Below, in pieces: positions 25,531-49,797 of a stretch of 64,000 bases of DNA. Every line of letters starts with the position of its first letter. The first letter of the stretch is position 1. Location of the stretch: contig NZ_WTZA01000001.1 of assembly GCF_009827495.1 (NCBI RefSeq), forward strand, positions 1,431,001 through 1,495,000, written 5' to 3'. This DNA is from Tsuneonella aeria. Lineage in GTDB: Bacteria; Pseudomonadota; Alphaproteobacteria; Sphingomonadales; Sphingomonadaceae. Position numbers and translations under genes: made by a program. The notes below the pieces were generated by a model. It saw only the letters and a list, made by a program, of their open reading frames with translations, was not told the origin of the DNA and ran no database searches.

Positions 25531-25623
25531 GGAGACGTGGGTGAGTGGCTGAAACCAACGGTTTGCTAAACCGTCGTACTGGTAAATCCGGTACCGAGGG
25601 TTCGAATCCCTCCGTCTCCGCCA
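25531..25623 (+). tRNA. tRNA-Ser(GCT)
   Basis: Acceptor GGAGACG pairs with CGTCTCC; the anticodon loop TTGCTAA gives GCT at 25565-25567. It has a long variable arm (GTACTGGTAAATCCGGTAC), as in serine tRNAs, a T-loop TTCGAAT, and encoded CCA. Its 3' end is the insertion point of the islands that follow. Confidence 0.97.
25602..25623 (+). repeat. Attachment copy 1: 3' end of tRNA-Ser(GCT)
   Basis: The last 22 bases of the tRNA recur exactly at 49474-49495. A 16-bp block, 25610-25625, recurs at 40162-40177. All copies point the same way, as expected for tRNA-targeted integration that restores the gene. Confidence 0.85.
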
Positions 25624-32799: not shown

Positions 32800-32838
32800 A
32801 TCTGAAGGTTATAGCATCGCACGTGTAGGAGCCACGCC

Positions 32839-33765: not shown

Positions 33766-33800
33766 CGCTTTCGTCGTCGCTGACCTGCGCCTTCGGGCTA

Positions 33801-33925: not shown

Positions 33926-34011
33926 CGTTTCTCGCGCTAGCTTAGCGCTATGCCTTGGCCGTTCGTGATAGACGTAAACAAGTTCTCGTCGGTCCCTCTC
34001 AAGGGGCAGTG

Positions 34012-34671
34012 ATGCTGCGTTACGAGAGAGACAAGCGTGTACTGGCGATGGGCTACGCTGCCCTGGCCGGTGCGGTCGACGCCATCGGTTTTCTGAAGTC
34101 AGGCGGTTTGTTCGTATCTTTTATGACCGGCAACTCCACCCGGCTTGCGGTCGGGCTGGCCGAAACCGCACCCGTGGGCGCAGCGGCGGCCGCACTTATC
34201 GCTCTGTTCGTCACGGGCGTTATACTAAGTGTGGTCATCAGCGAGAGCGTGATCGCCCGTTACCGTAAGGTCACCGCCACACTTGTCGTTGCTACCGTCC
34301 TGATTGCCGCCGCAGCGGCCGACAGCTTCGGCTCTGACAGGTTGGCCATTGCCTGCCTGTGCATCGCGATGGGTGCTGCCAACGCCATATTCAGGCGCGA
34401 CGGGGAAGTCAGCATTGGGGTCACCTACATGACCGGCACGCTTGTTAAGCTGGGGCATCGATTGGCTGATGCGTTGCGAGGTTCGCACGAAGCTTCGTGG
34501 TTGCCATACCTTCTGCTCTGGCTTTCCCTTGTGGCTGGAGGGATTACCGGCGCCCTCGGGTTCGTGTTGGCGGCTAATGCCAGTCTGTGGGGCACCGCAA
34601 TCGCGTCCATGTCCCTTGTCATCGCCACTTGGTGGGTCACTAGAGAACGAGAGCCGCCTGGCATCAGTTGA
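34012..34671 (+). CDS. YoaK/DUF1275-family membrane protein
   Basis: 219 residues from ATG (MLRYERDKRVLAMGYAALAGAVDAIGFL). About six membrane spans; GGLFVSFMTGNSTRLAVGLAE and GEVSIGVTYMTGTLVKLG are the two repeated DUF1275 motifs (TGN / TGT). Function not established for the family. It sits between repeats B and C in the island cargo. Confidence 0.85.
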   Translation: MLRYERDKRVLAMGYAALAGAVDAIGFLKSGGLFVSFMTGNSTRLAVGLAETAPVGAAAAALIALFVTGVILSVVISESVIARYRKVTATLVVATVLIAAAAADSFGSDRLAIACLCIAMGAANAIFRRDGEVSIGVTYMTGTLVKLGHRLADALRGSHEASWLPYLLLWLSLVAGGITGALGFVLAANASLWGTAIASMSLVIATWWVTREREPPGIS

Positions 34672-34693
34672 GCAGCGTTGCTTTAGGAAGCTG

Positions 34694-34819
34694 TGTCCGC
34701 TTCCCACCCAATATCGGACGTTAGCTACTGGCTCCGCATCGCCTGAAACCAGACTGTCCGCTTTCCGCGCTTCGCTGTCGAAAAGCTGCCCGTCCGCTAA
34801 CGACCCCGTTGCGGACATT
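34694..34819. repeat. Structured intergenic repeat, copy C (full length)
   Basis: Left stem GTCCG (34695-34699) / CGGAC (34715-34719), middle GACTGTCCGCTT, right AAAAGCTGCC and hairpin GTCCGC-TAACG...CGTT-GCGGAC (34792-34816). It follows the YoaK gene and is the best-preserved copy. Confidence 0.78.
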
Positions 34820-34916
34820 CAGCCGACTCCAGATCATTGGCGAATTACGCCCGTCATCTGGCAGTCGGGTGATACCGCACCTGTGGGCTAACCCTGAACC
34901 AGAGGGCGGTGGCTAA

Positions 34917-35492
34917 TTGAACCCCTCTGGAACCTCTCACTGGTCCACCCCTTTTGAGAGCATGTTATTCGACGGTTTCCATTCACTACTCCGGATAACC
35001 CTTGGGGCGATCACCGCTTACGCAGCATTGATCATCTTCCTGCGCATCTCTGGAAAGCGCTCGCTCGCAAAACTTAACGCCTTTGACTTCGTTATCACTG
35101 TCGCCTTGGGCTCCACCCTTGCAAGCTTCATACTCAGCAAGGATGTTTCATTTGCGGACGGGTTGTTGGCGTTAGCCATCTTGCTTGGGCTGCAATATGC
35201 CATCAGCCGTGCGTCCATCGCTTCTGATAAGTTTGGAAGACTTGTGCGCTCACAGCCCCGGCTCCTGTTGAAAGACGGGCTGTTCGACGAGGGCGCTTTG
35301 CAGGAGGAGCGCGTCACGCTCGCGGAGGGCATGGCGGCCATCCGCAAGCACGGGATCGGCAACCCCACAGACGTTGCGGCCGTGATACTAGAGACGGATG
35401 GCAGCCTGAGCGTAATTGCAGCTGTGCAATCTGATCAGCTGACCTCGTTGGAGGATGTAAAAGGCTTTGAACCGAGCGGAGGACGTCGGTGA
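34917..35492 (+). CDS. YetF/DUF421-family membrane protein
   Basis: 191 residues from a TTG at 34917, or 176 from the ATG at 34962; neither start is certain. Two to three N-terminal membrane helices (ITLGAITAYAALIIFLRISGKRSLAKLNAFDFVITVALGSTLASFIL), then the soluble YetF domain (PRLLLKDGLFDEGALQEERVTLAEGMAAIRKHGIGNPTDVAAVILETDGSLSVI). The family is linked with stress and sporulation in Bacillus; the role here is unknown. It leads a three-gene plus-strand set with DUF2254 and BON-MscS. Confidence 0.88.
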   Translation: MNPSGTSHWSTPFESMLFDGFHSLLRITLGAITAYAALIIFLRISGKRSLAKLNAFDFVITVALGSTLASFILSKDVSFADGLLALAILLGLQYAISRASIASDKFGRLVRSQPRLLLKDGLFDEGALQEERVTLAEGMAAIRKHGIGNPTDVAAVILETDGSLSVIAAVQSDQLTSLEDVKGFEPSGGRR

Positions 35493-35559
35493 CTAGATAT
35501 GGTGCTTGTCTATTATTCCACGCCCTGACCTTCGGGCGGCCCCAAGAACGGCATGCTTC

Positions 35560-36888
35560 ATGAACGGCCGGCTGAGAGCCAGTATCTACATGTTGCGCTC
35601 AAGCTATTGGTTCATCCCATCCATGATGGCCATTATCGCCATCGGGCTCGGCGTGGTGATGATATGGGTCGATGCGCGGTTCAGTCACGGGTGGATCGAG
35701 GGACTTAGTTGGTATCAGCAGGTGCGGCCTGAAGGCGCACGCGAAATCCTGTCGACGATCGCCGGGTCGATGATAACCGTGGCTGGTGTGGTTTTCTCAA
35801 TCACTATCGTCGCGCTGTCCTACGCTTCCAGCCAATACGGCCCGCGTGTTCTCACGAACTTCATGAGCGATCGAGGTAACACAATTACGCTGGGCACGTT
35901 TATCGCGACGTTTCTCTATTGTCTTGTAGTGCTCCGGACGATCCGGGGCGGCGACGATGCCTTCGTCCCTCAGTATGCCGTTTTCGTGGCCATGCTTCTC
36001 GCAGGCTGCTCGATTGGGGTGCTGATTTATTTCATCCATCATGTCCCTCAAAGCATCCACATCAACCACGTCGTAGCTCGCATCGGAGAGCAGCTCATCG
36101 CCGATACCTCGGAGCGGTTCCCCGCACGAATTGGTTTAAAGCCCGACGGCTCCCACGTGGGTCACGCGGTGCCGGCCACCCACACCGTGCAGGTTTTCAG
36201 CAACGAGGCGGGTTACATTCAAAGCATAGACGAGGACGGCATTCTTGGCCTCGCCACCCAAGCCGACGCACTCATCAAACTAGAGCTTGGCCCCGGAGAC
36301 TTCACCTCGGCGGGACGCACGCTCGCCGAGGTGACCTATTGGAAGCGCTGGGACCAAGAGCGGTCTGATCAGTTACGCGCGTGTTTGACGGTCGGGAAAA
36401 AGCGCACGCCTGAGAACGATTTGCTGTTTCTGGTGAGCGAGCTTGTTGAGATTGCAGCTCGCGCATTGTCACCAGGAGTGAATGACCCGATGACCGCTGT
36501 GACCTGCCTCGACTGGCTCGGCGCAGGGGGCGCAGAACTTGCTGGTCGCGAAATGCCCGATGCTGTGCGGGTGGATGAGGCGGGGCGCCCTCGTGTAATC
36601 GTGCAGCCCAACAGCTTTTCAGAATTTCTGGCAGAGAGCTTTAGCAGGTTGCGAAGCTACGTAGCCGGTGACGTTATTGCGAGCCTGCATTTTCTGGACG
36701 TGATCGGCATCCTGTCGAAAGCTTGCCTGTGCCGTGAACAGATAGACGAGCTCAATGCAGAGTTGACGCTGCTGATTGAACAGGCCCAGGACCGCCTAAA
36801 TGGCCCAGGGCTGCGCGCCGTCCAGGAGCGCGGGAAGTTGGTCGAAGCAACCCTTAAGCATCGTGCACAATCTGTCACTTTCGCTTAG
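35560..36888 (+). CDS. DUF2254 predicted membrane protein
   Basis: 442 residues from ATG (MNGRLRASIYMLRSSYWFIPSMMAI). Four membrane helices in the first 200 residues, with the characteristic AREILSTIAGSMITVAGVVFSITIVALSYASSQYGPRVLTNFMSDRGNTITLG. The C-terminal soluble region is ARALSPGVNDPMTAVTCLDWLGAG and GDVIASLHFLDVIG. Function unknown. 67 bases after YetF and upstream of MscS, likely a common transcript. Confidence 0.88.
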   Translation: MNGRLRASIYMLRSSYWFIPSMMAIIAIGLGVVMIWVDARFSHGWIEGLSWYQQVRPEGAREILSTIAGSMITVAGVVFSITIVALSYASSQYGPRVLTNFMSDRGNTITLGTFIATFLYCLVVLRTIRGGDDAFVPQYAVFVAMLLAGCSIGVLIYFIHHVPQSIHINHVVARIGEQLIADTSERFPARIGLKPDGSHVGHAVPATHTVQVFSNEAGYIQSIDEDGILGLATQADALIKLELGPGDFTSAGRTLAEVTYWKRWDQERSDQLRACLTVGKKRTPENDLLFLVSELVEIAARALSPGVNDPMTAVTCLDWLGAGGAELAGREMPDAVRVDEAGRPRVIVQPNSFSEFLAESFSRLRSYVAGDVIASLHFLDVIGILSKACLCREQIDELNAELTLLIEQAQDRLNGPGLRAVQERGKLVEATLKHRAQSVTFA

Positions 36889-37113
36889 ACATCGAAGTTG
36901 TCTAGCAATCGGCCGGGTGGCCTCAGTTGAGGCACGCCAAGATTTCCCACGAGACGAGCTTCGGAACGGACCAGCGATAGCGGGCTGCGCTGATCCCTTC
37001 AGCTTTCGCAGCTTGTGGGTGAGACTGGCTTGGAGCTTACTTCAATGCGGGTTTGCTCAACGACACGCTTCCGGGATACCGACACACGATCCTTCATGGG
37101 ATAAAGTCTGTCT

Positions 37114-38493
37114 ATGAAGTCCGCCCTGATCTTAGCTGCATTTGTCTTCAGCCTCGTCAGTTATCCCTGTGGCGCGCAAAGCGGGCCTGTGGCGGGAGTG
37201 GACCCGTCCCCCATTGCGTCTTCCCCCGACGGCACGGCTACGATTTCGTCAACTGAGGCCGCAAACCAGGACAGCGACATCGCCTCGCGACTGCAGGGCA
37301 TATACCGCGAGCTGGATGGTCTGGAGCCGATCCAAGTGGCGGTCGACTCAGGCGTTGTCGTGTTGTCCGGCTCGCTTGTTCAGTCGGGAGACATCGACCG
37401 AGCTCGGCAGATCGCGCTACGAGTCGACGGCGTCGTCGCGGTGCAGAACAATCTCAAGAAATCTGGAGACGTGTCGGAGACACTGTCTCCGGTTATGGCG
37501 CGGCTCAAGGAGCGCCTCGATCAGATAGTCAAATTTCTGCCCCTTTTAGCGATCGCGCTGATCATCATGGTGCTGTTCTGGCTCTTGGGAAGCGCGCTTG
37601 CACGCGCGCGGTCTTTCTGGAACCGGATATCACCCAACAGCTTCCTTGCCGACCTTTTGGCGACGACCGCGCGACTGCTGGTGATCGTGACGGGCCTTGT
37701 CATCGCACTGGACCTTCTGGGTGCGACGACCTTACTTGGCGCGATATTGGGGTCGGCAGGTGTCGTCGGTTTGGCCATCGGTTTCGCCGTAAAGGATACG
37801 GTCGACAACTACGTCAGCTCTATCATGCTATCGATCCGGCAGCCTTTCCGTGCCCATGATCATGTCGTGATCGGAGACCGGGAGGGGCTTGTGATCCGTC
37901 TAACCAGCCGGGCTACGATCCTGATGACGCTAGAGGGCAACCACCTCCGCATTCCCAACAGCACCGTCTTTATGTCCGAGATACTGAACTACACCCGCAA
38001 TTCGGAAAGGCGGTTTGAATTCACGCTCGGGATTGATGCCGAAGATGATCCTGGTGAGGCTATGAGGGTAGGCATCGATCGCTTGAGTGAGTTACCATTC
38101 TTGCTGCGTGATCCTGCGCCGAGTGCGCGGCTGGATGAGGTTGGCGATAGCAATATAATACTAAAATTCCTCGGCTGGATCGATCAGACCGAAACTGATT
38201 GGTTCAAGGCCCGAAGTGCGGCAATCCGCGCGGTGAAGATGGCCCTGGAAGCGCAAGGCTTTGGGCTCCCCGAACCAACTTATCGTCTCCGCTTTGATCA
38301 CGGCCACCCGCTAGAGATCGCACGAAGCGGCGCACCTGCTCTCCGTAAGAAATTCAAGGGCGAGGACAAAGCGACGATGGCCGTGGATCATCAAGACGTA
38401 GCTGCCGAAACTAATATCGAAAAGAAGGTCACTGAAGAGCGCGAAAGAAGCGTGGAGGAAGATATGCTAGATCGCAGGAGACCTATCGAATAA
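37114..38493 (+). CDS. Mechanosensitive channel (MscS) with N-terminal BON domain
   Basis: 459 residues. Signal peptide (MKSALILAAFVFSLVSYPCGA), then a periplasmic BON-like domain at about 60-115 (GLEPIQVAVDSGVVVLSGSLVQSGDIDRARQIALRVDGVVAVQNNL). Three helices follow, including the pore-type TLLGAILGSAGVVGLAIGFAVKDTVDNYVSSIMLSIRQPF, then the MscS beta domain (LMTLEGNHLRIPNSTVFMSEILNYTRNSERRFEF) and a long charged tail. Releases solutes under hypo-osmotic shock. The BON domain may tie gating to lipid or surface contact. 225 bases of non-coding DNA precede it. Confidence 0.88.
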   Translation: MKSALILAAFVFSLVSYPCGAQSGPVAGVDPSPIASSPDGTATISSTEAANQDSDIASRLQGIYRELDGLEPIQVAVDSGVVVLSGSLVQSGDIDRARQIALRVDGVVAVQNNLKKSGDVSETLSPVMARLKERLDQIVKFLPLLAIALIIMVLFWLLGSALARARSFWNRISPNSFLADLLATTARLLVIVTGLVIALDLLGATTLLGAILGSAGVVGLAIGFAVKDTVDNYVSSIMLSIRQPFRAHDHVVIGDREGLVIRLTSRATILMTLEGNHLRIPNSTVFMSEILNYTRNSERRFEFTLGIDAEDDPGEAMRVGIDRLSELPFLLRDPAPSARLDEVGDSNIILKFLGWIDQTETDWFKARSAAIRAVKMALEAQGFGLPEPTYRLRFDHGHPLEIARSGAPALRKKFKGEDKATMAVDHQDVAAETNIEKKVTEERERSVEEDMLDRRRPIE

Positions 38494-38671: not shown

Positions 38672-38718
38672 TGTCCGCTTTCCACCCAATTGCAGACGCT
38701 AGGCAACGTCCGCTTTCC
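38672..38718. repeat. Structured intergenic repeat, copy D (left half)
   Basis: GTCCGC (38673-38678), the shared CTTTCCACCCAAT stretch, and GCAGAC (38692-38697), followed by a further GTCCGCTTTCC. It overlaps the integrase stop codon and marks the end of the cargo. Confidence 0.65.
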
Positions 38719-39946
38719 TGATCGGCGTCACCTTTGCACCAGCCGCGCCATCGCTCGCGCAGTAGGCCGCCCAATCATCCATCAGCCGCCGTCGTTTGTC
38801 GAACAGGTCGCCGCGCCGATAAGCCCGCTCCACCTTGTTCTCGATCGTGTGAGCGAGCGCCATTTCCGCCACTTCATGGGCATACCCGGTGCATTCGGCT
38901 GCCCAATCGCGGAAGCCCGAACGGAAGCCGTGCACGGTCGCGCCAACCTTCATTCGGCGCATGAGCATTCCCATTGCCATGCCGGACAACTGGCCGCCCT
39001 TCGCGCCGGGAAACAGATAGTCGCTGCCGAGCGGCTGGAGGCGTTCGAGGATAGCAACAGCGCGCGGGGACAGCGGGACGCGATGCTCTTTCGCGGCCTT
39101 CATGCGGTCGGCTGGGATCGCCCAGATTGCCTTGTCCAAATCGACCTCTGCCCAAGTCGCGCCGATCACCTCGCCAGAGCGGGCAGCGGTGAGGATCGTA
39201 AATTCCAGCGCCAGCGCCGCCACGGCGTCTCGCTTGTGCAGCGCGCGCACGAATGCGGGTATTTCCTCATAGGGGAGCGCCTTGTGGTGCCCTCGCGACA
39301 GGCGGGTGCGAGCGGGCAGAATTTGCGCAAGGTGGCCGCGCCAGCGCGCCGGGTTCTCCCCATGGCGATAGCCGCGCGCCTTGGCGCTATCGAGCACGGT
39401 TTCAATCCGCCCGCGAATCCGGCTGGCAGTCTCGGCTTTCCCCTTCCAGATTGGCTCCAGGATCTTGAGCACGTGCGCCGTCTCGACCTCGGCAACCGGC
39501 AAATTACCGATCACGGGATAAACATAGGTGTCGAGCGTGTTGCGCCATTGCTGGCGATGCTTGGGATTGCGCCAGCTTTCCTCGTTCGCCGCGATGTAGG
39601 CCGCTGCCACGTCCCTGAACGTGGTTCCGGCCACCTTGGCAGCCTGAGCCGCCGCAAGCGCCTCAGCGGCCTCCCGATCGCGTTCCTCCAGCGGATCGAC
39701 GCCTGCCTTAACCTTCAAGCGCAGCGCCGCCGCTTCGTCCCGAGCATCGGCAAGTGACATTCCGCCCTGCCCAGCCGCACCAAGGCCAACGTCGCGCGAT
39801 TTGCCGTTGAGCATGAAGCGATAGACCCATGAGCGTGCCCCACTCGGTTTGACCAGCAAATGCAGCCCGGCCCCGTCCGCATGCCGTCCCGGCTTGGCGT
39901 TCTTCACCGCAAGAGGGGTTAGCGCGTTACTCAGCTTCCTTGGCAT
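38699..39946 (-). CDS. P4-type tyrosine integrase
   Basis: 415 residues with AGGGAG upstream. N-terminal DUF4102 arm-binding domain (LTPLAVKNAKPGRHADGAGLHLLVKPSGARSWVYRF), SAM-like core domain, and catalytic domain with R256 (TAARSGEV), H339 and R342 (HGFRSGFRDWA), H366 (AHTIENKVERAYRRG) and nucleophile Y376. It catalyses insertion and excision at the tRNA-Ser 3' end. It lies 216 bases inside the 40162-40177 attachment copy, with arm-like repeats between. Confidence 0.95.
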   Translation of the reverse strand: MPRKLSNALTPLAVKNAKPGRHADGAGLHLLVKPSGARSWVYRFMLNGKSRDVGLGAAGQGGMSLADARDEAAALRLKVKAGVDPLEERDREAAEALAAAQAAKVAGTTFRDVAAAYIAANEESWRNPKHRQQWRNTLDTYVYPVIGNLPVAEVETAHVLKILEPIWKGKAETASRIRGRIETVLDSAKARGYRHGENPARWRGHLAQILPARTRLSRGHHKALPYEEIPAFVRALHKRDAVAALALEFTILTAARSGEVIGATWAEVDLDKAIWAIPADRMKAAKEHRVPLSPRAVAILERLQPLGSDYLFPGAKGGQLSGMAMGMLMRRMKVGATVHGFRSGFRDWAAECTGYAHEVAEMALAHTIENKVERAYRRGDLFDKRRRLMDDWAAYCASDGAAGAKVTPIRKADVA

Positions 39947-40161: not shown

Positions 40162-40177
40162 CTCCGTCTCCGCCACT
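40162..40177 (+). repeat. Attachment copy 2
   Basis: CTCCGTCTCCGCCACT, identical to 25610-25625 (tRNA-Ser 3' end, CCA and two more bases). Right end of element 1 and, on the tandem reading, left end of element 2. Confidence 0.85.
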
Positions 40178-40232
40178 CGCCCCAGGGTAAACTCCTCAAG
40201 TTGTGAAATAATTCAGTAATTACCCTGCTGGG

Positions 40233-40252
40233 GTTCCCACCGCCGTTCCCAC
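40233..40252 (+). repeat. Arm-like repeat pair, left copy
   Basis: GTTCCCAC-CGCC-GTTCCCAC, two octamers with a 12-bp period, 56 bases inside attachment copy 2. Same heptamer core as the element 1 ends. Confidence 0.55.
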
Positions 40253-40339
40253 TGCACGATGTGGTTGTCGGCGATCAATGGTGAACGGGACAGGACAAGA
40301 GGGGCGGCGGAGGCAATGCAGAGATGCGCTCTTCCGCCT

Positions 40340-40378
40340 GATTAGGTCCGCACCCTAATGGATTAGGTCGGCCTAATC
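40340..40378. promoter_or_regulatory. Tandem ATTAGG...CCTAAT palindromes
   Basis: Two adjacent inverted repeats share the same arms: ATTAGG (40341-40346) / CCTAAT (40354-40359), and GATTAGG (40361-40367) / CCTAATC (40372-40378). The ATTAGG half-sites start 21 bp apart, two helix turns. This is the layout of a cooperative operator, but no gene is recognisable next to it. Confidence 0.4.
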
Positions 40379-40674
40379 GCCTGCGGGCGACGTCGCGAGA
40401 GGCGGAACCGGGCAACTCCGCGGAATCTGGCATTTTGCCATGCCTTTGGCTGACCCAATCCAACCTAATTACCCTCCTCTCTCGCTCGCTCTTTCCGCAG
40501 GAGAAAAGCAAAGAAAGCGCCCGCGACTCTGCGCCAGAACGCACTGCCAAAACTGACAATTCATTCTGCGCTGTAGATGGCGTTCTAGCGCGGACCGGTC
40601 AGCCAAATCGGTATCACTCTTTTCCTAGCCGAGTGAGTGCAGATCACCGGCTTCATGGCCGAGCCGGTCTGCTC

Positions 40675-40694
40675 GTGGGAACTGCCGTGGGAAC
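40675..40694 (-). repeat. Arm-like repeat pair, inverted copy
   Basis: GTGGGAAC-TGCC-GTGGGAAC, the reverse complement of the pair at 40233-40252 with 18 of 20 bases kept. The two enclose about 420 bp. Confidence 0.55.
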
Positions 40695-41162
40695 CAGCTT
40701 GGGCCGTGAGTTCGCGACCCAGAGAAAACTGCCATGAATCACGCCACGGAGGCGGATCGAACCTCAGCCGAACCATTTCTGTGAGAGCTCCTGAGAAGCA
40801 AGGGTGCTGAGAGCCAGGTCCCTCTCGGTGGATCTGCCCTTCTACACCCCCCCCACGGGGTACACGTGGCGCAGGGAGGGGGGGCGTCTTCCCTGAACGG
40901 TTCCATGCAGGTGATCTAAGGCTAGATATCCCAGGATGAGAGCACCCGACGACCCACCGCTCTGCCCAAACCAAAGCTGCACTTCCGCTTTGCGCCTTCA
41001 TTCCGGACGTTAAGCGTCGCCGCAGAACAGCCCGGAAGCTGCCTTCTGCGTGAGCCGGTCAGCGACAAATTTCACCCTTAGTGGGTGCCCCGATGCTTAG
41101 CGCAGACGAGTGGTCACTTGGCCGCTCACGGGGCATCCTTAAATGGGAGCAGTCGTATTAAC

Positions 41163-42197
41163 TCAATGATGCAGCCCTAGGCTCGCTATGACATCCGCCC
41201 AAGACACCAGCTTGAAGTTTTGCGCCGCTGGTGCGTTGACCCCGTCCTGCACTACCAGCAGCCCCGTTGGATAGTCCGGTCCGAAATCCCCGAGCACGAG
41301 GGCGATGCCATCGGTTTCCTCGGTGCTGCCGACCACGCCGCGGCCGACGCGGAAGCGGCCCGCCGGACGCAACGACGGCAATTCGTACAACACGTAAGCA
41401 TTGTCACCCTGGCTGGAGGCGACCAGCCACCCGCCGTCGGCGCCGCTTTCCGCCAGTGCCAACCCTTCGACATCCGCGACCAGATGCCGGCCGTCGGCGG
41501 GCGCGACGAGCGTGGCCGTCTCGCTGCCACCCGGCCCGACCTCGAAGCGCCAGATGCCGACGTCTTCTTCGCCCACGTAAAGCAGCCCGCTGCGCTGATC
41601 GACCACGCAACCCTCCGGCTGGGTGGCGAGCTTGAGCGAGCGCACTGTCGTGCCGCTCACCGCGCCGCCGCTCACCTCCAGGCGAACCTGTTCGATCCGC
41701 CCGGTCTTGAGCACCGAAAAGGCGAACAACTCGTCGCCGAGCTGGGCGAGACACACCCCATAGGCTTCGCCGGCCCCGCCGCTCACCTCGCCCAGCGCCA
41801 CCAGCTGCCCGCCAGTTGTGTCGAGGCGGTAGAGACGCAACCTGGCGCCGGCGAGGTCATTTCGGTCGCTGGCAGCGACCAGCACGGTGCCATCAGCCAA
41901 GGTCGTCAGGTCAACGTTGTTCAACCGGCCGGCAGGCTCAAACGAACGCACCTTTCCGTCGAGGCCATAGACGTACAAGCCGGCCTTCTTGTCGGTCGCG
42001 ACAATCAGGCTGGCGGCGGGGTCGGCGGCGTTGCGCCAGATCGCGGGATCGTCCGCCGCATCGGCGGCGACCGTGCCGACCGGCGTGGTTTCCCCGCGGG
42101 CGGTAACGGTGACGGCCGGCAGCGAGTTCGGCACCGGCGCGGTGGTGGTGCAGCCCGCGGTCGCCGCGAGCAGCGCGAGAGTAAAAACCCGGCGCAT
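41163..42197 (-). CDS. Beta-propeller phytase (3-phytase family)
   Basis: 344 residues. Signal with lipobox-like end (MRRVFTLALLAATAGC), so probably a lipoprotein. Propeller motifs of the family: DAADDPAIW, GLYVYGLDGKVRSF, GRLNNVDLTTL, CVVDQRSGLLYVGEEDVGIWRFEV, DVEGLALAE, SQGDNAYVLYEL, STEETDGIAL; the acidic residues are the Ca2+/phosphate ligands. It releases phosphate from phytate outside the inner membrane. The ATG overlaps the receptor stop (TGATG), so the two proteins are made together. Confidence 0.9.
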   Translation of the reverse strand: MRRVFTLALLAATAGCTTTAPVPNSLPAVTVTARGETTPVGTVAADAADDPAIWRNAADPAASLIVATDKKAGLYVYGLDGKVRSFEPAGRLNNVDLTTLADGTVLVAASDRNDLAGARLRLYRLDTTGGQLVALGEVSGGAGEAYGVCLAQLGDELFAFSVLKTGRIEQVRLEVSGGAVSGTTVRSLKLATQPEGCVVDQRSGLLYVGEEDVGIWRFEVGPGGSETATLVAPADGRHLVADVEGLALAESGADGGWLVASSQGDNAYVLYELPSLRPAGRFRVGRGVVGSTEETDGIALVLGDFGPDYPTGLLVVQDGVNAPAAQNFKLVSWADVIASLGLHH

Positions 42198-44533
42198 CAG
42201 AAGGCGTACCTTGCGACGACCTGGAACACCGGTCCGGCGCGCTCACTCTCGAGCTCGTACTCGTCGAAGTCGCGGTCGATCTGGTCTGCGATGGTGGTGA
42301 ACTTGTTGAACGTTTCAGCCTTCGCGCTGTCCAGTAGGTTCGATCCCACCGCGCGGATGGTGAAGCTGTCACCGATGCGCTTTTCGACGAACACCTCCAG
42401 GTCCGCGCCGTACGTGGTGCGCACTTCCTCGCCTACCAGACGGTCAACCGCCGCCCCCTGCTTGCGGTAGGTGGCGCCGAACGCCGCAGCCAGCGTACGC
42501 AGGTTCTGGATGAAGCCGAAGTTGTAGACGTATTTCGACTGGCCGTTGAACCGCCGCTCACCGAACTGGTCGGTGATGTTGCTATCCAGAAGCGACAGGT
42601 TGCCGAACACACCAGTGTCGCGCAGGCCGATGAAGCCAAGGTCGGACGACAGGTCGAATTCGATGCCGTACACCTCGCCGTTGCCCGCATTGCGCGGCTG
42701 GAGGACGAAGGTGCCAGCGCCTTCCGAGCCTTCCGCTCCGGTGTTGGCGATCTCGACCAGATCTTTCACGTCGCGGTAGAACAGGTTGACGCCAATTACA
42801 CCAGTGCGGCCAATGCGGTGCTCGTACCCCAGGTCCGCGCCCCACGCAGTCTCGGGCCTGAGCAGCGGGTTGCCGAGCAGGTCGTTGTCGCCAAGCTCCG
42901 CCTCTAGCAGCGCGGGCGAGATATAGTCGAACCGTGGGCGGCGCATGGTCCGCGCGACCGAGCCGGTCACCCGGCCAGCGCCGACCTGGTACTTGAACGA
43001 GGCGGAGGGCAGCAGCGCATCGTAATCGGTGCGCGAACTGCCGAGCCCGGCGCCGACCGTCTGGTCGTCGATACGAACCTCGGTGTTTTCCCACCGCACG
43101 CCCGCTTCGAAGCGGAGCGGCCCGCTGTCGCCTTCGACCAGCGCGTAAACGTCGCGGCGATCTTCGTCGATCGTGTTGAGGCCGCCGGCGGCGGGCTGGA
43201 GCGCGGGGAAGTTGTCCGGCGCGAATTCGCCCGGATCGCGGCTGAACTGGTCGTAGCCGCTACGGTCCGCGGCGGTGAGGTTGAAGCGGCTGCGGATCGT
43301 CTGAATATTGGTCGCCCGATCCTTATTCTGCGCAAAGGCGCCGATCGCGAAGTCGACTCCGCTGCCGAGTCCGAACACGTGCTCCAGCTTGGCGAACACT
43401 TCGTCGTCGCGGGTCGTGCGGGTGGTCAGGTCGCCGGTGAAGCGCGGAGCGGAGCGGTCGAAATCGACCTCGTATTCGAATTCGTCCTGCGCATCGTCGA
43501 ACCGGGCGAAGCCGACCCGCAGCTTGGTCTCGCCCAGCGCCCAGCGGTGGTCGAGCTCAGCGCCCAGAGACCAGCTTTCCTGGTCAATCGAATTGACGTT
43601 GGCGTTGTCGGTCAACAGATTGCCCGGGGTGCTGGTGCGCACCGGACCGGTGATCGCGGTCGGATCGTCATACTCGAAGGACCGTTCGCTCTCGGTACGG
43701 TCGGTCCGGACGTACGAGCCGGAAATCTCGAAATCGGTCGTTGCCCCCTCGATGCCCCAGGCGACGTTGCCCGAGTAATCGGTGCCGTTGCGGATGTCGG
43801 TCTGGTCTTCGCGGTTGTCGAATTCGTTCGTCGCAAAGTCGGGATCGTTCTCGGGCGAGTCGCCGAACCGCAGGCTGCTCTTCTTCTTGGGGTTATAGCG
43901 GCCTTGCACGTTGGCGCCGAGCAGCACTCGTCCAGGCCCCAGCGCGCCGCCATAATAGAAGCCGCTGCTCGGCTTGACCTTGCCGTCGTCGAACAACAGC
44001 GCGCCGCCCCGGACGTAGCCGCCATCGAGGGTGTAGCCATCACGCAGCACGATGTTGAGCGTGCCCGCGACCGCATCGCCCGAACGGCGAGCGGAGGACG
44101 ACCTGACAATCTCCACCTGCTTGATCAGTTCGGCTGGAATGCGGTCGAGGAAGAACGAGCGATCCGCCTGGCCGCCGGGGACCTTCTCACCATTGATCAG
44201 GATCTGCGTGTATCCGGGATCCAGCCCGCGTAACCGCGCGCCGTCGCTTTCGATCACGTCCGACAGGAAAGTGACCGATGGCACGCGCTTCAGGGCATCG
44301 CCCGCGGTCAGCGGTTCGAACCGCTGGAAGTATTCCTCGTCATACACCAGCACCGGCTCGGCCGCCTCGCTGCGATTGCGGAAGCCGATATCAGCCTGGA
44401 CGACGATCTCCTGGCTGGTCTTGATATCGCGGTCGGGCCTTTCGGCTACGCTGTCGGGGTTGTCGGCGGTCTGGGCGAAAGCGGGCGTGACGGCGAGCGC
44501 AAGCATGCTTGCGCCGCAAAACAAACGAATCAT
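42197..44533 (-). CDS. TonB-dependent receptor coupled to phytase
   Basis: 778 residues. Signal peptide (MIRLFCGASMLALAVTPAFAQ). The plug domain has DALKRVPSVTFLSDVIESDGARLRGLDPGYTQILINGEKVPGG and VEIVRSSSARRSGDAVAGTLNIVLRDG. A long barrel follows, ending PVFQVVARYAF with a terminal Phe. It lies directly upstream of the phytase with overlapping stop/start and behind a Pho box, so the natural guess is uptake of phytate or inositol phosphates across the outer membrane. Confidence 0.92.
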   Translation of the reverse strand: MIRLFCGASMLALAVTPAFAQTADNPDSVAERPDRDIKTSQEIVVQADIGFRNRSEAAEPVLVYDEEYFQRFEPLTAGDALKRVPSVTFLSDVIESDGARLRGLDPGYTQILINGEKVPGGQADRSFFLDRIPAELIKQVEIVRSSSARRSGDAVAGTLNIVLRDGYTLDGGYVRGGALLFDDGKVKPSSGFYYGGALGPGRVLLGANVQGRYNPKKKSSLRFGDSPENDPDFATNEFDNREDQTDIRNGTDYSGNVAWGIEGATTDFEISGSYVRTDRTESERSFEYDDPTAITGPVRTSTPGNLLTDNANVNSIDQESWSLGAELDHRWALGETKLRVGFARFDDAQDEFEYEVDFDRSAPRFTGDLTTRTTRDDEVFAKLEHVFGLGSGVDFAIGAFAQNKDRATNIQTIRSRFNLTAADRSGYDQFSRDPGEFAPDNFPALQPAAGGLNTIDEDRRDVYALVEGDSGPLRFEAGVRWENTEVRIDDQTVGAGLGSSRTDYDALLPSASFKYQVGAGRVTGSVARTMRRPRFDYISPALLEAELGDNDLLGNPLLRPETAWGADLGYEHRIGRTGVIGVNLFYRDVKDLVEIANTGAEGSEGAGTFVLQPRNAGNGEVYGIEFDLSSDLGFIGLRDTGVFGNLSLLDSNITDQFGERRFNGQSKYVYNFGFIQNLRTLAAAFGATYRKQGAAVDRLVGEEVRTTYGADLEVFVEKRIGDSFTIRAVGSNLLDSAKAETFNKFTTIADQIDRDFDEYELESERAGPVFQVVARYAF

Positions 44534-44607
44534 AAATTCTCGAGCCCCTCGGTCGGTGAACTGAGCCGGCCGCTAGGGTTGCAATGTTACGGGATCGCGG
44601 ACTCTGC

Positions 44608-44625
44608 ATGACAGACGCGTGACAG
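44608..44625 (-). promoter_or_regulatory. Pho box upstream of the TonB receptor-phytase operon
   Basis: On the minus strand: CTGTCAC-GCGT-CTGTCAT. Two 7-base half-sites with the 4-base spacer of the classical PhoB box; 13 of 14 half-site bases match CTGTCAT repeated. It lies 75 bases before the receptor ATG, with TAACAT 18 bases downstream as a possible -10. PhoB control under phosphate starvation is therefore likely; phoB/phoR are not in the window. Confidence 0.8.
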
Positions 44626-44650
44626 GCGCTTTCCGCCGGCTTCCACGCGG

Positions 44651-46168
44651 TCAGGCGCCCAGCGCGCCTTCCGGCGTTTCGCTGACCGCGACGACCGGTT
44701 TCAGGCCGATCCATTCGGCCAGCTGCTTCAGGTCGCCCTTGACTTGCTCCGACAACAGTTGCGCGCGCGACGGGTGAAGCCACAGGCGCAGCACGCGATC
44801 GCTGCGGATCAGCCGGCTGGTGATCAGCGACACCCGCGAGCCCGATCCCAGGCGCTTGCACAGGCGGAAGGCCATGCCCCAGGTGACCGCTTCGCGCAGC
44901 GCCCCGGCGTCAGCGAGCCGCGCCAACTCGGGCCGGTCGATCGGTTGCTTGCCACCAGCGGCGAGCAGCGTGGCGGCGATCCGCGCGCGGCCAGCCGCGT
45001 CAAGGCCGACCCAGCGCTTTTCCATCGCCCAGTCGTAAGCCTGCCGCGCCCGCAGGTTGGGCTCGATGTGACCCATCGCCAGCGCCAGCAGGATCGCGGC
45101 GAAGCGCAACCGCTCCGCGGCGGGGTCGTTGCCCGGCACCGCGTCGGCGGTCCACGCTGCAATGATCGCGGCCAGCGCCGGCGCGCCGCCGCGCGTCTCG
45201 GTGAAATGCGCCACCGCGGCGATCAGCGGGTCCTGCCGGCGTAGTTCGTGGTCGAGCCGCTGGAACAGCAACCCCTCGCGCAGGCCCCAAGAAGAAAATA
45301 CCAGGCTGTCGCGCTGCAATTCTCCCAGCATCAGCCGCAGCAAGGCCGCCGCATCCGGCAGCGCGCCGGCGCGGGTGGCTGATATGCCCGGCAGCGCGGC
45401 CAGCCGCTCAGGGTCCATCCGCTCGACCCGGCCGGCGAGCGCTTCGGCCTCGGCGCGCGTCAGAACGAAACCATGCGGATCGCTTAGCGGGTATTTGCCA
45501 TCGCGCATCGCCAGCACTGCCAGCGCGCGCCACGTACCGCCGACCATGTACATGGGTCCTGGATCGGCAGCCTCCCAGCCGACCCTACCGATCGCGGCGC
45601 TCACCTCCTTGTCGAACGATCGCGCTCCCCTGGCCCGCAAGGCGGGCAGCCGCAGCGTGCCGAACGGCAGGCTGACGCCATCGTGGCAGTCGCCATCGCC
45701 GATCGTCACCAGTTCCAAGCTGCCCCCGCCCAGGTCGGCCACGGTTCCGCGGGCACCGGGAAATGCGCCGATCACCCCGAAGGCGGAGGCGCGCGCTTCC
45801 TCGTCGCCCGCCAGGAGCCGGGGCGCCAAGCCGAGAGCGCGCACCTGAGCGAGGAACTCCTCGCCGTTGCTTGAATCGCGCACGGCGGCGGTCGCCACCG
45901 TCTGCACGTCAGCGATCGCGAAATCCTCGATGATGGTGGCATAGCGGGCGAGCGCGCGGAGCGCGCTGTCCATCGCCTTGTCGGCCATCTTGCCGGTGAG
46001 TGCCAGGTCCCGCCCTAGCTTGGCGCTGTCTCGTTCGTTGAACCACACCCGCGGAGCGCGCGTAGGGCCGGCGTAGATCACCAGCCGGACGGTGTTCGAC
46101 CCGATGTCGATGACCGCGCGATCAGGTCCCGCGCCTTGCTCGAAACTCGCCGGCCGCCCGCGCGTCAC
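44651..46168 (-). CDS. ppx: Ppx/GppA-family exopolyphosphatase
   Basis: 505 residues from a GTG that overlaps the ppk stop (GTGA). ASKHA-type phosphate-binding motifs: AVIDIGSNTVRLVIY, ATAAVRDSSNGEEFL, GTVADLGGGSLELVTIGDG, LPFGTLRL, MYMVGGTWRALA. The C-terminal HD-like helical region and extra tail (RLIRSDRVLRLWLHPSRAQLL) follow. It degrades polyphosphate (or pppGpp) in the cytoplasm. Translationally coupled to ppk, which makes the polymer. Confidence 0.92.
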   Translation of the reverse strand: MTRGRPASFEQGAGPDRAVIDIGSNTVRLVIYAGPTRAPRVWFNERDSAKLGRDLALTGKMADKAMDSALRALARYATIIEDFAIADVQTVATAAVRDSSNGEEFLAQVRALGLAPRLLAGDEEARASAFGVIGAFPGARGTVADLGGGSLELVTIGDGDCHDGVSLPFGTLRLPALRARGARSFDKEVSAAIGRVGWEAADPGPMYMVGGTWRALAVLAMRDGKYPLSDPHGFVLTRAEAEALAGRVERMDPERLAALPGISATRAGALPDAAALLRLMLGELQRDSLVFSSWGLREGLLFQRLDHELRRQDPLIAAVAHFTETRGGAPALAAIIAAWTADAVPGNDPAAERLRFAAILLALAMGHIEPNLRARQAYDWAMEKRWVGLDAAGRARIAATLLAAGGKQPIDRPELARLADAGALREAVTWGMAFRLCKRLGSGSRVSLITSRLIRSDRVLRLWLHPSRAQLLSEQVKGDLKQLAEWIGLKPVVAVSETPEGALGA

Positions 46169-48315
46169 ACGGCGCCCCGGCGGAGCTTCAGCTTGGGCAC
46201 GCGGCTATCAGCCAGCGCGCCGCCCCGGCCGGACAGCGAAGGGTTGGTCATGAAGTACTCATGTAAGTTGAAGCCATCGCCGCTTGCTTCCACCCGCTCA
46301 TACGTGCCGTCGCTGCCGTCGAGCAGCCAGCTTTGCTCGGTATCGATCAGGTTGGCCAGCAACACTTGTTCCAGCACCTGGCTGTGCACGGTCGGGTTAA
46401 GGATCGGCACCAGCACCTCTACGCGGCGTTTGAGGTTCCGGCTCATCGCATCGGCGCTTGAAATGAACACTTGAGCATGCTCGCTGGGCAGCGTGTGGCC
46501 ATTGCCGAACGCCCAGATTCGGCTGTGCTCCAAAAAGCGGCCGATGATCGATTTCACCGCAATGTTATCCGACAGGCCGTCCACCGACGGGCGCAGGCAG
46601 CAGATGCCGCGCACGACCAGCACCACCTTCACGCCAGCCTGCCCGGCGGCGTACAGTCGGTCGATGATCCCTCTTTCGGTCAGCGCATTGAGCTTTGCCC
46701 AGATCGCCGCCGGGCGCCCGGCGGCCGCATGCTCCGCCTCGCGATCGATCAGGCCGTAGAGCCGATCGCGCAAGGTCAGCGGGGAGATCGCCAGCAGCTC
46801 GGTTTCCTGCGGCTCGACATACCCGGTGACGAAGTTGAACACTTTGGCGGCGTCGCGACCGAGTGAAGGATCGGCAGTGAAGAAGCTGAGGTCGGTGTAC
46901 ACCCGCGCGGTCTGCGGATGGTAGTTGCCGGTACCGAAATGGCAGTATGTTCGGTACGCATTGTCTTCCCGCCGGACAACCATCGAGATCTTGGCGTGGG
47001 TCTTCCATTCGACGAAGCCGTAGATAACCTGAACGCCCGCTCGCTCCAGTTCGCTCGCCCACTTGAGGTTCTGCTCCTCGTCGAAGCGCGCCTTCAGCTC
47101 GACCACGGCGGTGACCGACTTTCCGGCTTCCGCGGCCGAGATCAGCGCGGCGACCACCGGCGACTGGTTCCCAGCGCGGTACAACGTCTGCTTGATCGAT
47201 ACGACGTGCGGATCGGCGGCCGCCTGCAAGAGGAAATCGACCACCACTTCGAAGCTTTCGTAGGGATGGTGGATGACGATGTCCTTTTCTCGGATTGCCG
47301 CGAAGCAATCACCGTCGTGCTCCAGGATCCGCTCGGGATATCGCGGCGCATAGGGCGCGAACTTGAGGTCGGGGCGGTCTTCGGCGACCACCTCGAGTAG
47401 CCCGTTGATGCCGATCAATCCGGCATTGCGGTTGATCGTTGGCTGGTCGACTGCGAGTTGGTCGATCAGCAGCTGCTCGGCGACAGGGTCGAAGCCCTGG
47501 TCGATTTCCAGCAGGACAACCCGCCCGCGACGTCGGCGCTGGATCGCGGAGCGGAAATATCGAACCAGGTCTTCGGCCTCTTCCTCAAGCTCGATATCGC
47601 TATCGCGCAACACGCGAAATGTGCCGTGTCCGTCTATCCGAAATCCTGGAAACAGCAGCGATGCATAGCGCGAGATCACCTGCTCGACCGCGATGTAGCT
47701 CGGACGCTCTCCTGGCACGCGCACGAGCCGCGGGATGGCGTTCGGGATCAACACCATCTCCACCAAGGTGCTGCCGTCGTCGATCCTGGTCAGCGTGAAC
47801 AGGGTGCCGATGCCCTGGTTGGCGACGAACGGGAACGGGTGCGCCGGGTCGATCGCCTGCGGGGTGATAACCGGCACGAGATGATCGAGGAAGTACTGCC
47901 GCAGCCAGTCCTCGGCGGCCGGGTCGATGGCGTCCGCCATCGCCAGGTGGATGCCGCAGTCCGCCAGCAGCGGAACTAGATCCTGCAGGATCGCCTGCTG
48001 GCTCTGTTCCAGTTCGCGCACTTTGGCGTGTATCGCGGTCAGCTGCTGGCTGGGGGTCAAGCCGTCGATCGACAGCTTGGGCACTTGGCCGCGGACTTGC
48101 GCCGCCAAGCCCGCCACCCGGATCATCATGAACTCATCGAGATTGCTGCCGGAAATCGACAGGAAGCGGAGTCGCTCGAGCGGCGGATAGGCCGCGTTGC
48201 TGGCTTCCGCCAAAACACGTTCGTTGAATGACAGCCAGCTGATTTCGCGGTTGAAGTATCGCGTCCGCGCCTCACCGATGGAGGTGGGCTGGCTACCCGT
48301 GCTGTTCAAATTCAT
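46165..48315 (-). CDS. ppk1: Polyphosphate kinase PPK1
   Basis: 716 residues from the ATG at 48315 (MNLNSTGSQPTSIGEARTRYFNREISWLSFNERVLAEA). An earlier GTG or similar start would give a poorly conserved extension. PPK1 motifs: LRFLSISGSNLDEFMMIRVAGL, phosphohistidine H440 in WKTHAKISMVVRRE, CHFGTGNYHPQTARVYTDLSFFTAD, and H597 in IIGRFLEHSRIWAFG. It builds polyphosphate reversibly from ATP. A weak Pho-box-like site lies upstream at 48366-48383. It is followed by ppx with a four-base overlap. Confidence 0.96.
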   Translation of the reverse strand: MNLNSTGSQPTSIGEARTRYFNREISWLSFNERVLAEASNAAYPPLERLRFLSISGSNLDEFMMIRVAGLAAQVRGQVPKLSIDGLTPSQQLTAIHAKVRELEQSQQAILQDLVPLLADCGIHLAMADAIDPAAEDWLRQYFLDHLVPVITPQAIDPAHPFPFVANQGIGTLFTLTRIDDGSTLVEMVLIPNAIPRLVRVPGERPSYIAVEQVISRYASLLFPGFRIDGHGTFRVLRDSDIELEEEAEDLVRYFRSAIQRRRRGRVVLLEIDQGFDPVAEQLLIDQLAVDQPTINRNAGLIGINGLLEVVAEDRPDLKFAPYAPRYPERILEHDGDCFAAIREKDIVIHHPYESFEVVVDFLLQAAADPHVVSIKQTLYRAGNQSPVVAALISAAEAGKSVTAVVELKARFDEEQNLKWASELERAGVQVIYGFVEWKTHAKISMVVRREDNAYRTYCHFGTGNYHPQTARVYTDLSFFTADPSLGRDAAKVFNFVTGYVEPQETELLAISPLTLRDRLYGLIDREAEHAAAGRPAAIWAKLNALTERGIIDRLYAAGQAGVKVVLVVRGICCLRPSVDGLSDNIAVKSIIGRFLEHSRIWAFGNGHTLPSEHAQVFISSADAMSRNLKRRVEVLVPILNPTVHSQVLEQVLLANLIDTEQSWLLDGSDGTYERVEASGDGFNLHEYFMTNPSLSGRGGALADSRVPKLKLRRGAV

Positions 48316-48365
48316 GACGCCCCAATGGCCCGGCCGGCTTACCGGAAGACGCGTGCGGGAATCAG

Positions 48366-48383
48366 ATGTCAGTTTCGCGACAA
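48366..48383 (-). promoter_or_regulatory. Weak Pho-box-like site upstream of ppk
   Basis: Minus strand TTGTCGC-GAAA-CTGACAT: the right spacing, one half-site close to CTGTCAT (6 of 7), the other poor (4 of 7). It lies 51 bases before the ppk ATG. May be chance. Confidence 0.3.
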
Positions 48384-48401
48384 CGAGGTGGAAATCGCCG
48401 C

Positions 48402-48662
48402 TCAATGCGTCCCGGCGGGAGGCGCCGGCGGGTCCATCATCTTGGTCGCCTTGCGCCCGATCTGCCCCAGCGACCCTTTCCCCTCCAGCGTCTTTTCACC
48501 GAGATAAGCCGCCAGCGATGTGGCAGCGGACAACGCGAGGGTTCGCGCCTCGGGGTGCTCGAGCAAGCCGATTAACTTTCGCAAGTCCTTGCGTGTCCCC
48601 TTGGACAACTTGAACCCGAAAATCCGCTTGGGAATTGTCACCTTCTTGTCGGGCTTTGCCAT
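48402..48662 (-). CDS. Small basic protein upstream of ppk
   Basis: 86 residues: MAKPDKKVTIPKRIFGFKLSKGTRKDLRKLIGLLEHPEARTLALSAATSLAAYLGEK and a tail. The pattern of a Lys-rich start, IPKRIxGxKLxKxxRK, then a hydrophobic helical end resembles small conserved proteins of sphingomonads; I cannot name a function. The frame runs on upstream into the broken gene, but the ATG here and the change of composition suggest an independent gene. It ends 86 bases before ppk. Confidence 0.6.
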   Translation of the reverse strand: MAKPDKKVTIPKRIFGFKLSKGTRKDLRKLIGLLEHPEARTLALSAATSLAAYLGEKTLEGKGSLGQIGRKATKMMDPPAPPAGTH

Positions 48663-49187
48663 GCTTGCACAAGGCGCCGCCAGCGTCGGCTTCGATGCCG
48701 CGTTCGCGCATAGCCCAATGGACGATGGCCTTGCTCGGATAGCGCGTTCCGTCGTGGACCAGCCAGTATCGGTTAGGCAGACGCGAACCTCGAGCGTACT
48801 CACGAAGTCTTGCGGCGAGCTGGCGGCATCGCAGGCTGCGATCGCTGCGAGAATGGCTTGGCGGTCGAGGCCGGACAAGCGGCCGCTCGGGCTGGCCTCG
48901 GCTTCGCAGAAGCGACGGTAGGTGGTCAGGGCCGATCGATAGGATGCCAGATTGTTGTAGAGATGCCCATCGATGGCGAGCGCTGTAAGGTTTGGCCGCC
49001 CCGCCGCTTCATCGGCGGTTGAATAAGCGAAGGTTTCGAGCAGCGACGCCATCCGGTTTTGCCGAAAGTGTTCGTCGAGGTCACCGTGGGCCTGATCGAC
49101 TCGTCTGGCGTCCGACATCTTGGTGCCGATGCTACTCGGCGCGAGCTCCTGTGTCTCAAGCCACGTCCTGTATTCCTGATCTCTCAC
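48663..49187 (-). pseudogene. Broken N-terminal part of a restriction-type (ScoMcrA-like) gene
   Basis: MRDQEYRTWLETQELAPSSIGTKMSDARRVDQAHGDLDEHF...LASYRSALTTYRRFCE resembles the N-terminal SAM-like region of restriction-associated proteins. After about residue 128 this frame loses sense, while another frame of the same strand continues with RYWLVHDGTRYPSKAIVHWAMRERGIEADAGGALC, the YWLVHDGxRYPSKAI motif of McrA-type head domains. So a frameshift lies near 48790-48805. The coding sense then stops at the start of the 86-residue gene, so the rest (HNH or other nuclease) is gone. Likely a defence-gene remnant at the element end. Confidence 0.7.
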
Positions 49188-49473
49188 CCGCGCTGCTCCA
49201 GTATCCTCTGAGGCTTGCCATCGAACGTCATCGCGACAGATTCGGACGCAGGCAAAAGTTCAGTTCGTTGGTCAACGAGCTTGGCAGATCGGAGCTACAA
49301 CTCATAGAGGCGGTCTTGGTCGGCGGGCGGGGAAAGGTCGCGGAACTAGGTTTCCGCCAGTCACGCTCCCACCGCCCAATATTCGATCAAAATAAACCTG
49401 GGGTATATTATGGGGTAAAATACAGGGTCGATTCAAGGTTCAACTCTTAAGTTCAATTGGTTAGCGCCTGAGG
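49188..49473. other. Spacer between the broken gene and attachment copy 3
   Basis: No gene with clear sense. It becomes AT-richer towards 49380-49440 and holds the TGGGGTA pair at 49399-49417. Confidence 0.5.
49399..49417 (+). repeat. TGGGGTA direct repeat near attachment copy 3
   Basis: TGGGGTATATTATGGGGTA: two heptamers with a 12-bp period, 57 bases before the attachment copy. The same period is seen at the other element ends, which suggests integrase arm sites. Confidence 0.45.
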
Positions 49474-49495
49474 TCGAATCCCTCCGTCTCCGCCA
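49474..49495 (+). repeat. Attachment copy 3: 22-bp tRNA-Ser 3' end
   Basis: Exact copy of 25602-25623, from the T-loop to CCA, preceded by AGG. No tRNA structure can be formed upstream, so it is a duplicated tRNA end and not a gene. Confidence 0.85.
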
Positions 49496-49720: not shown

Positions 49721-49797
49721 TGGCGCGCCCGGCAGGACTCGAACCTGCTGCCTCAAGATTAGAAGTCTCGCGCTCTATCCAGATGAGCTACGGGCGC
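49721..49797 (-). tRNA. tRNA-Arg(TCT)
   Basis: Acceptor GCGCCCG / CGGGCGC, D-arm GCTC...GAGC, anticodon stem CGAGA/TCTTG with loop CTTCTAA (TCT), T-arm GCAGG-TTCGAGT-CCTGC, encoded CCA. Reads AGA. Confidence 0.95.

What the first reader, a model, noticed from the sequence alone, without database searches (positions are those of the whole stretch)
41163..48662. Phosphorus-scavenging and storage set inside an island-like segment, with a near-perfect Pho box
Phytase and a TonB receptor overlap by one base and lie behind CTGTCAC-GCGT-CTGTCAT (44608-44625). Directly upstream on the same strand are ppx and ppk, also translationally coupled, with a weaker Pho-like site at 48366-48383. Together: import or breakdown of phytate outside, and storage of the phosphate as polyphosphate inside. 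Finding these together between tRNA-end repeats suggests a transferable phosphate module. I do not know of this arrangement being described.
Basis: partly seen in the sequence, partly recalled or inferred. Interest (0 to 1): 0.75.

Follow-up and report, generated by a model that had tools for sequence, protein, structure and literature searches.

The report
Phosphate scavenging-and-storage genes on an island
In one Tsuneonella bacterium a mobile-looking stretch of DNA carries both genes to harvest phosphate from phytate and the genome's only known-type genes to store it as polyphosphate, which are missing from their usual place; the parts are known, but their repeated pairing in related bacteria was not found in print.

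Summary
They sit between 22-bp tRNA-Ser 3'-end repeats (25602, 49474; 16-bp copy at 40162) with a P4-type integrase.

The genus's usual site (metZ-apaG-[ppx-ppk]-lysR) is empty here, and the island copy does not group with congeners' copies (AU p=0.0019 for PPK+PPX; PPK alone p=0.145): loss, then regain by transfer. (2) Four genome sites match the Pho box with at most one mismatch; two others lie at a phosphate-selective porin and a PBP-family gene. (3) Phytase lies within 6 kb of ppk in 12 of 148 related genomes (about 0.5 expected), in four arrangements and four PPK clades, often with phoX. The window's order occurred once.

Not supported: the weak Pho site before ppk (chance level); transfer as one unit. 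Open: a clean empty island site, because the right flank is rearranged. New variant of a known kind; moderate interest.

The parts
46165..48405 (-). ppk (polyphosphate kinase 1); the only PF02503 match of the genome; likely start ATG 48315
44651..46168 (-). ppx (Ppx/GppA family); start GTG overlaps the ppk stop by 4 nt
44608..44625 (-). Pho box, 1 mismatch, 25 nt after the ppx stop and 74 nt before the receptor ATG
42197..44533 (-). TonB-dependent receptor (Plug plus barrel)
41163..42197 (-). beta-propeller phytase; N-terminus MRRVFTLALLAATAGC reads as a lipoprotein signal (my reading, no tool)
48366..48383 (-). weak Pho-like site before ppk, 4 mismatches: chance level
25531..25623 (+). tRNA-Ser(gct), proposed integration site; 3' end 25602-25623 is the left repeat
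40162..40177 (+). 16-bp copy of the tRNA-Ser 3' end, 216 nt before the integrase start
49474..49495 (+). 22-bp copy of the tRNA-Ser 3' end, right repeat
38699..39946 (-). P4-type tyrosine integrase (Arm-DNA-bind_3, Phage_int_M, Phage_integrase)
   Evidence: relatives near tRNA-Ser in two congeners
48402..49187 (-). 261-aa open frame without a family match; by eye a gene remnant

Best explanation
The four genes form a phosphorus acquisition-and-storage locus on a tRNA-Ser island of a Tsuneonella species. When phosphate runs low, PhoB~P binds 44608-44625 and drives receptor plus phytase. The receptor brings phytate, its metal complexes or partly dephosphorylated products across the outer membrane; the phytase, a likely lipoprotein, releases phosphate, which enters by the porin and the Pst-type system. 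PPK1 banks surplus phosphate as polyphosphate and PPX gives it back. ppk-ppx is probably read from a promoter that is not PhoB-type; only 117 nt, without a terminator-like site, separate ppx from the receptor, so read-through is possible. In evolution, the lineage lost ppk-ppx at the genus's usual site and regained a pair by transfer from another erythrobacterial lineage, next to a receptor-phytase pair. Shown by sequence: gene content, overlaps, repeats and integrase, empty usual site, foreign ppk-ppx, Pho box. Inferred: PhoB binding, substrate of the receptor, benefit of storage, mobility.
For: Genes. Pho box: one of 4 sites with at most 1 mismatch in the genome; of the other three, one lies 58 nt before a Porin_O_P gene and one overlaps the start of the longest frame of a PBP-family gene. 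In 74 phytase loci (6 of 80 dropped for short flanks), 57 have a frame of 600 aa or more ending within 300 bp upstream; 16 of these 57 have a site with at most 3 mismatches around its start, 15 of the 16 on the gene's strand, against 2.5% of 1390 control 500-mers. Island: repeats and integrase. Empty usual site: apaG and lysR abut, 13 bp between aligned blocks, where congener G153 has ppx-ppk between them. Foreign ppk-ppx: AU p=0.0025 for PPX, 0.0019 for PPK+PPX. Coupling: phytase within 6 kb of ppk in 12 of 148 genomes; at least 6 changes of linkage on a 56-row PPK tree; among 360 near-complete genomes phytase is in 183 of 345 with ppk and 1 of 15 without, Fisher p=0.0003. No terminator-like site in 44534-44650.
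Against: PPK alone does not reject grouping with the congeners (AU p=0.145). The ppk Pho-like site is at chance level, and in Caulobacter ppk1 is starvation-induced but PhoB-independent (PMC11208175, passages read). No genome with the same order was found, so unit transfer is unshown, and the phytase has other nearest kin than ppk-ppx (supports only 84-89). A clean empty island site is not shown: the window's right flank (tRNA-Arg) lies 50 kb or more from tRNA-Ser, or on another contig, in all 10 congeners, and tRNA-Arg's usual neighbour sits on contig C2 here. GC of 40178-49473 (0.644) is near its surroundings (0.65-0.67). The fourth strong Pho site lies before a transglycosylase in a type IV secretion region, not an obvious phosphate gene. 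The co-occurrence test is not corrected for kinship; without Tsuneonella p=0.017.
Confidence: 0.7

Rival explanations
1. Chance neighbours in an integration hotspot: the receptor-phytase pair and ppk-ppx were brought to tRNA-Ser separately and have no regulatory or functional tie.
For: The tRNA-Ser 3' flank differs among the congeners; ppk-ppx and phytase have different nearest kin; ppk lacks a significant Pho box; the window's order is seen once in 148 genomes.
Against: Phytase within 6 kb of ppk in 12 of 148 genomes where about 0.5 is expected, in four arrangements, in four PPK clades.
Confidence: 0.2
2. The window's ppk-ppx is the native pair, relocated within the genome beside receptor-phytase and fast-evolving, so that it only seems foreign.
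For: PPK alone does not reject a Tsuneonella clade (AU p=0.145); the window row has a fairly long end branch (0.29-0.40); the usual site is empty in this genome, as relocation would leave it.
Against: PPX and PPK+PPX reject it (p=0.0025, 0.0019); in both trees the window groups with G246 inside another starred clade; six congeners also lost the pair at that site and have none elsewhere, so loss alone is common in the genus.
Confidence: 0.1
3. The locus serves iron or metal uptake: the receptor imports metal-phytate complexes as siderophore-like ligands, and phosphate is a by-product.
For: TonB receptors of this kind commonly take up iron chelates, and weak matches to siderophore receptors appear; PMC3400609 notes that phytic acid chelates iron (passage read).
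Against: A Pho box, not a Fur box, was found at the promoter (Fur boxes were not searched for); neighbours in related loci are phoX and ppk-ppx.
Confidence: 0.1

Closest known systems
TonB receptor-phytase pairs (Citromicrobium, PMC3400609; Flavobacterium johnsoniae Fjoh_1367/1368, PMC8115612; passages read)
   Same: A TonB-dependent transporter gene beside a PF02333 phytase; in F. johnsoniae both are induced by phosphate depletion.
   Different: In the passages seen, no ppk-ppx beside them and no island. F. johnsoniae has a polyphosphate-kinase-like gene in another phosphate-induced cluster (PUSIII, Fjoh_3851).
PhoB regulon of Caulobacter crescentus (PMC11208175, passages read)
   Same: PhoB regulon includes TonB receptors and a phytase; ppk1 responds to phosphate starvation.
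   Different: There ppk1 is PhoB-independent; whether it lies near the phytase was not checked.
Pho regulon in general (PMC4415409, passages read)
   Same: Phytases and Ppk are listed among genes induced on phosphate starvation.
   Different: Scattered operons, not one locus on an island.
Sphingomonad loci found here: G225 (receptor-phytase-phoX-ppk-ppx, one strand), genus g69 incl. Altererythrobacter CC-YST694 (receptor-phytase-phoX facing ppx-ppk), Sphingorhabdus/Sphingopyxis (ppk-ppx divergent from receptor-phytase)
   Same: Same gene families within 6 kb.
   Different: Other orders and strands, phoX in several, no tRNA repeats looked for.
tRNA-targeted genomic islands with P4-type integrase
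   Same: tRNA 3'-end direct repeats, integrase, cargo, variable flank among congeners.
   Different: Integrase beside the middle repeat and reading away from it; right flank rearranged; excision untested.

Membership tests
Beta-propeller phytase (PF02333) | Match above the Pfam cut-off over most of the profile | tested here: met
   221.6 bits against 21, profile 11-357 of 375; like 1poo, E 1.3e-58. NCBIfam's myxosortase-dependent phytase model is not met (176 against 440 bits)
Beta-propeller phytase (PF02333) | Calcium-dependent phytate hydrolysis | not testable with these tools
   needs enzyme assay
Polyphosphate kinase 1 | Curated model above cut-off | tested here: met
   NF003919 1103.9 against 908; TIGR03705 882 against 466
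Exopolyphosphatase (Ppx/GppA) | Pfam PF02541 above cut-off | tested here: met
   155.6 against 27 bits
Exopolyphosphatase (Ppx/GppA) | NCBIfam exopolyphosphatase TIGR03706 above cut-off | tested here: not met
   258.1 against 307 bits; a GppA-like activity is not excluded
TonB-dependent receptor | Plug and barrel domains | tested here: met
   PF07715 and PF00593 above cut-off; subfamily TIGR01782 not met, 178.5 against 310
Pho regulon | Pho box upstream beyond chance | tested here: met
   1 mismatch; genome-wide control; receptor-phytase loci elsewhere
Pho regulon | PhoB binding and induction by low phosphate | not testable with these tools
   needs experiment; a phoB gene was not searched for
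tRNA genomic island | Integrase and direct repeats of the tRNA 3' end | tested here: met
tRNA genomic island | Empty site in a relative with both flanks joined | tested here: inconclusive
   left flank conserved in 11 of 11, right flank not adjacent in 10 congeners
tRNA genomic island | Excision or transfer | not testable with these tools
   needs PCR for a circle

The most novel reading that the evidence does not exclude
In sphingomonads, phytate scavenging (receptor, phytase, phoX) and polyphosphate storage (ppk-ppx) are selected as one functional locus that has been assembled at least four times and can be carried on islands: phytase is of use mainly to cells that can bank the phosphate, so phytase hardly occurs without ppk, and a lineage that had lost polyphosphate synthesis regained it together with phytase.
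Probability: 0.35. Interest if true: 0.65.

Novelty: new variant of a known kind. Interest (0 to 1): 0.45.

Why it matters
It links two processes usually studied apart, harvest of phytate phosphorus and its storage, by a repeated gene neighbourhood, and gives a concrete case of loss and regain of polyphosphate synthesis on an island. In Tsuneonella, 6 of 11 species genomes have no ppk1, so the genus is a natural test of what polyphosphate is for.

Tried and rejected
Rejected: ppk-ppx-receptor-phytase as core order. Rejected: a second ppk1 in the genome. Rejected: the weak ppk Pho site as evidence; upstream of 38 ppk genes, sites with at most 4 mismatches occur in 12 of 38 against 17% of controls, and with at most 2 in 2 of 38 (L112, L176) against 0.3%, so single loci may have one, the window not clearly. 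Not decided: an excess of unit transfer; plasmid records gave no close kin (phytase best about 60% identity in 21 records, ppk best 62% in 99 records; whether any record holds both was not checked). Led nowhere: sigma-70 promoter scan (1 found, 1.0 expected); repeat search at large; left-flank alignment of congeners by the tRNA-Arg side. A parsimony count on the first PPK tree gave only 2 changes, because mostly linked loci had been sampled; after adding 20 unlinked rows it gave 6. No structure was predicted. PPK2, phoB and phoX were not searched for in the window's genome.

The 12 linked genomes are not independent (6 of one genus). Co-occurrence counts take any match at E 0.001 or better, some of them weak.
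Full report
What is there. Four genes on the minus strand, in transcription order ppk (46165-48405), ppx (44651-46168), TonB receptor (42197-44533), phytase (41163-42197), all with clear family matches (solved relatives). ppk and ppx overlap by 4 nt, receptor and phytase by 1 nt; the 1-nt overlap is kept in other loci, for example L112, L147, L168, L206, L210, L216, L308, L309, L313 by frame ends. Between ppx and receptor lie 117 nt with the Pho box 25 nt after the ppx stop and no terminator-like site.

Pho control. The box has one mismatch. In the whole genome 4 sites have at most 1 mismatch and 8 at most 2; the reversed pattern gives 1. Of the other three strong sites, one is 58 nt before a Porin_O_P gene (L322:7003-8367:-), one overlaps the start of the longest frame of a PBP-family gene next to it (L322:5884-6987:-), and one is 30 nt before a transglycosylase frame in a type IV secretion region. 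In other sphingomonads, 16 of 57 phytase loci with a long frame directly upstream have a site with at most 3 mismatches near that frame's start, 15 of them on its strand, against 2.5% of 1390 control pieces. The site before ppk has 4 mismatches and is at chance level. This fits Caulobacter, where phytase and TonB receptors belong to the PhoB regulon while ppk1 responds to starvation without PhoB (PMC11208175, passages).

Island. The 22-bp 3' end of tRNA-Ser(gct) (25602-25623) recurs at 49474-49495 and 16 bp of it at 40162-40177, next to a P4-type integrase at 38699-39946. So the phosphate genes lie in the outer 9.3-kb part, 40178-49473. The tRNA-Ser with its left side is found in all 11 genomes of the genus. 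The 3' flanks of the 10 congeners (one only about 0.6 kb long) share no block over 200 bp with each other; G126 shares 373 bp at 66% with the window's integrase, and G153 three pieces of 181-293 bp with the window at 27-33 kb; nothing matched the 40-49 kb part. By protein, relatives of the integrase lie near tRNA-Ser in G126 (48%) and G152 (31%). The right flank is not simple: tRNA-Arg and Vut_1 are conserved in all 11 genomes, but in the 10 congeners they lie 50 kb or more from tRNA-Ser or on another contig, and the sequence usually beside tRNA-Arg is on contig C2 in this genome. A clean insertion is therefore likely, not shown.

Loss and regain. The genome has one PF02503 match. The genus (Tsuneonella, inferred because contig length and phytase place of G151 equal those of T. 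flava MS1-4) has ppk in 5 of 11 genomes. In G151, G153, G155 and G156 ppk-ppx lies between apaG and lysR; in the window's genome apaG and lysR abut with 13 bp between the aligned blocks, and six congeners without any ppk also have apaG and lysR within about 2.2 kb. The window's PPK is 69-73% identical to the congeners' but 78-79% to proteins, several named Croceibacterium. Trees put window PPK and PPX with G246 in a clade without the congeners. A Tsuneonella clade with the window is rejected for PPX (p=0.0025) and PPK+PPX (p=0.0019; 31 rows, 4 long-branched loci left out), not for PPK alone (p=0.145; 36 rows). The phytase groups, with support 84-89 only, with that of Tsuneonella sp. HG094 and metagenome proteins, not with Croceibacterium phytases or T. 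flava's. So the locus is probably composite.

Recurrence. Among 80 named phytase loci, 14 hold ppk within the fetched flanks. In the survey, 12 of 148 genomes have phytase within 6 kb of ppk; the next are at 22-24 kb (3 genomes), then 52 kb and more; about 0.9 are expected within 10 kb, so about 0.5 within 6 kb. Arrangements: facing each other (six of genus g69, G274, G369), back to back (G199, G352), receptor-phytase-phoX-ppk-ppx on one strand (G225), and the window's order (once). phoX was confirmed in L147 (G069), L176, L308 (G369), L309 (G225) and L313 (G240); it is absent between the genes in G274, G138 and the Sphingorhabdus-type loci looked at. On a PPK tree of 56 rows the linked state needs 6 changes, in four separate groups. 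Near-complete genomes with phytase but no ppk are rare: 1 of 15 without ppk against 183 of 345 with it, p=0.0003; without Tsuneonella 1 of 9 against 179 of 340, p=0.017; not corrected for kinship.

Print. Ten searches of the paper library showed no description of phytase beside ppk-ppx; only open-licence papers are held, and most hits were seen as listings. Receptor-phytase pairs are known (PMC3400609, PMC8115612, passages). F. johnsoniae has a polyphosphate-kinase-like gene in a phosphate-induced TonB cluster (PMC8115612, passage), a partial forerunner.

Verdict. The new points are the empty native site, the foreign origin and the recurrence of the pairing.

Noticed in passing
Tsuneonella genomes (G047, G126, G149, G150, G152, G154): Six of 11 genomes of the genus have no ppk1 match, and the pair is missing between apaG and lysR; none of the six has a phytase match.
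   Followed up: partly
window 25531-25623 and congener loci L133-L142: tRNA-Ser(gct) is an integration hotspot: each congener has different DNA at its 3' side.
   Followed up: partly
window 26266-38493: Inner part of the island: SRAP, AAA_25 and Toprim genes (phage-like replication set), then PIG-L, DUF1275, YetF, DUF2254 and an MscS channel: perhaps a membrane-stress cargo.
   Followed up: no
window 49721-49797 and G000:C2 about 221 kb: The usual 3' neighbour of tRNA-Arg lies on another contig in this genome: a large rearrangement at this site.
   Followed up: partly
G000:C2:211444-211461 (L323:5444-5461): A strong Pho-box match 30 nt before a transglycosylase frame beside a TrbE/VirB4 gene: perhaps phosphate-controlled type IV secretion, or chance.
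   Followed up: no
G067, G081, G083 (L002-L004): Phytases of about 690 aa with two PF02333 domains in one open frame.
   Followed up: no
window 48402-49187: A 261-aa frame without family match directly before ppk; by eye a remnant of one or two genes.
   Followed up: no
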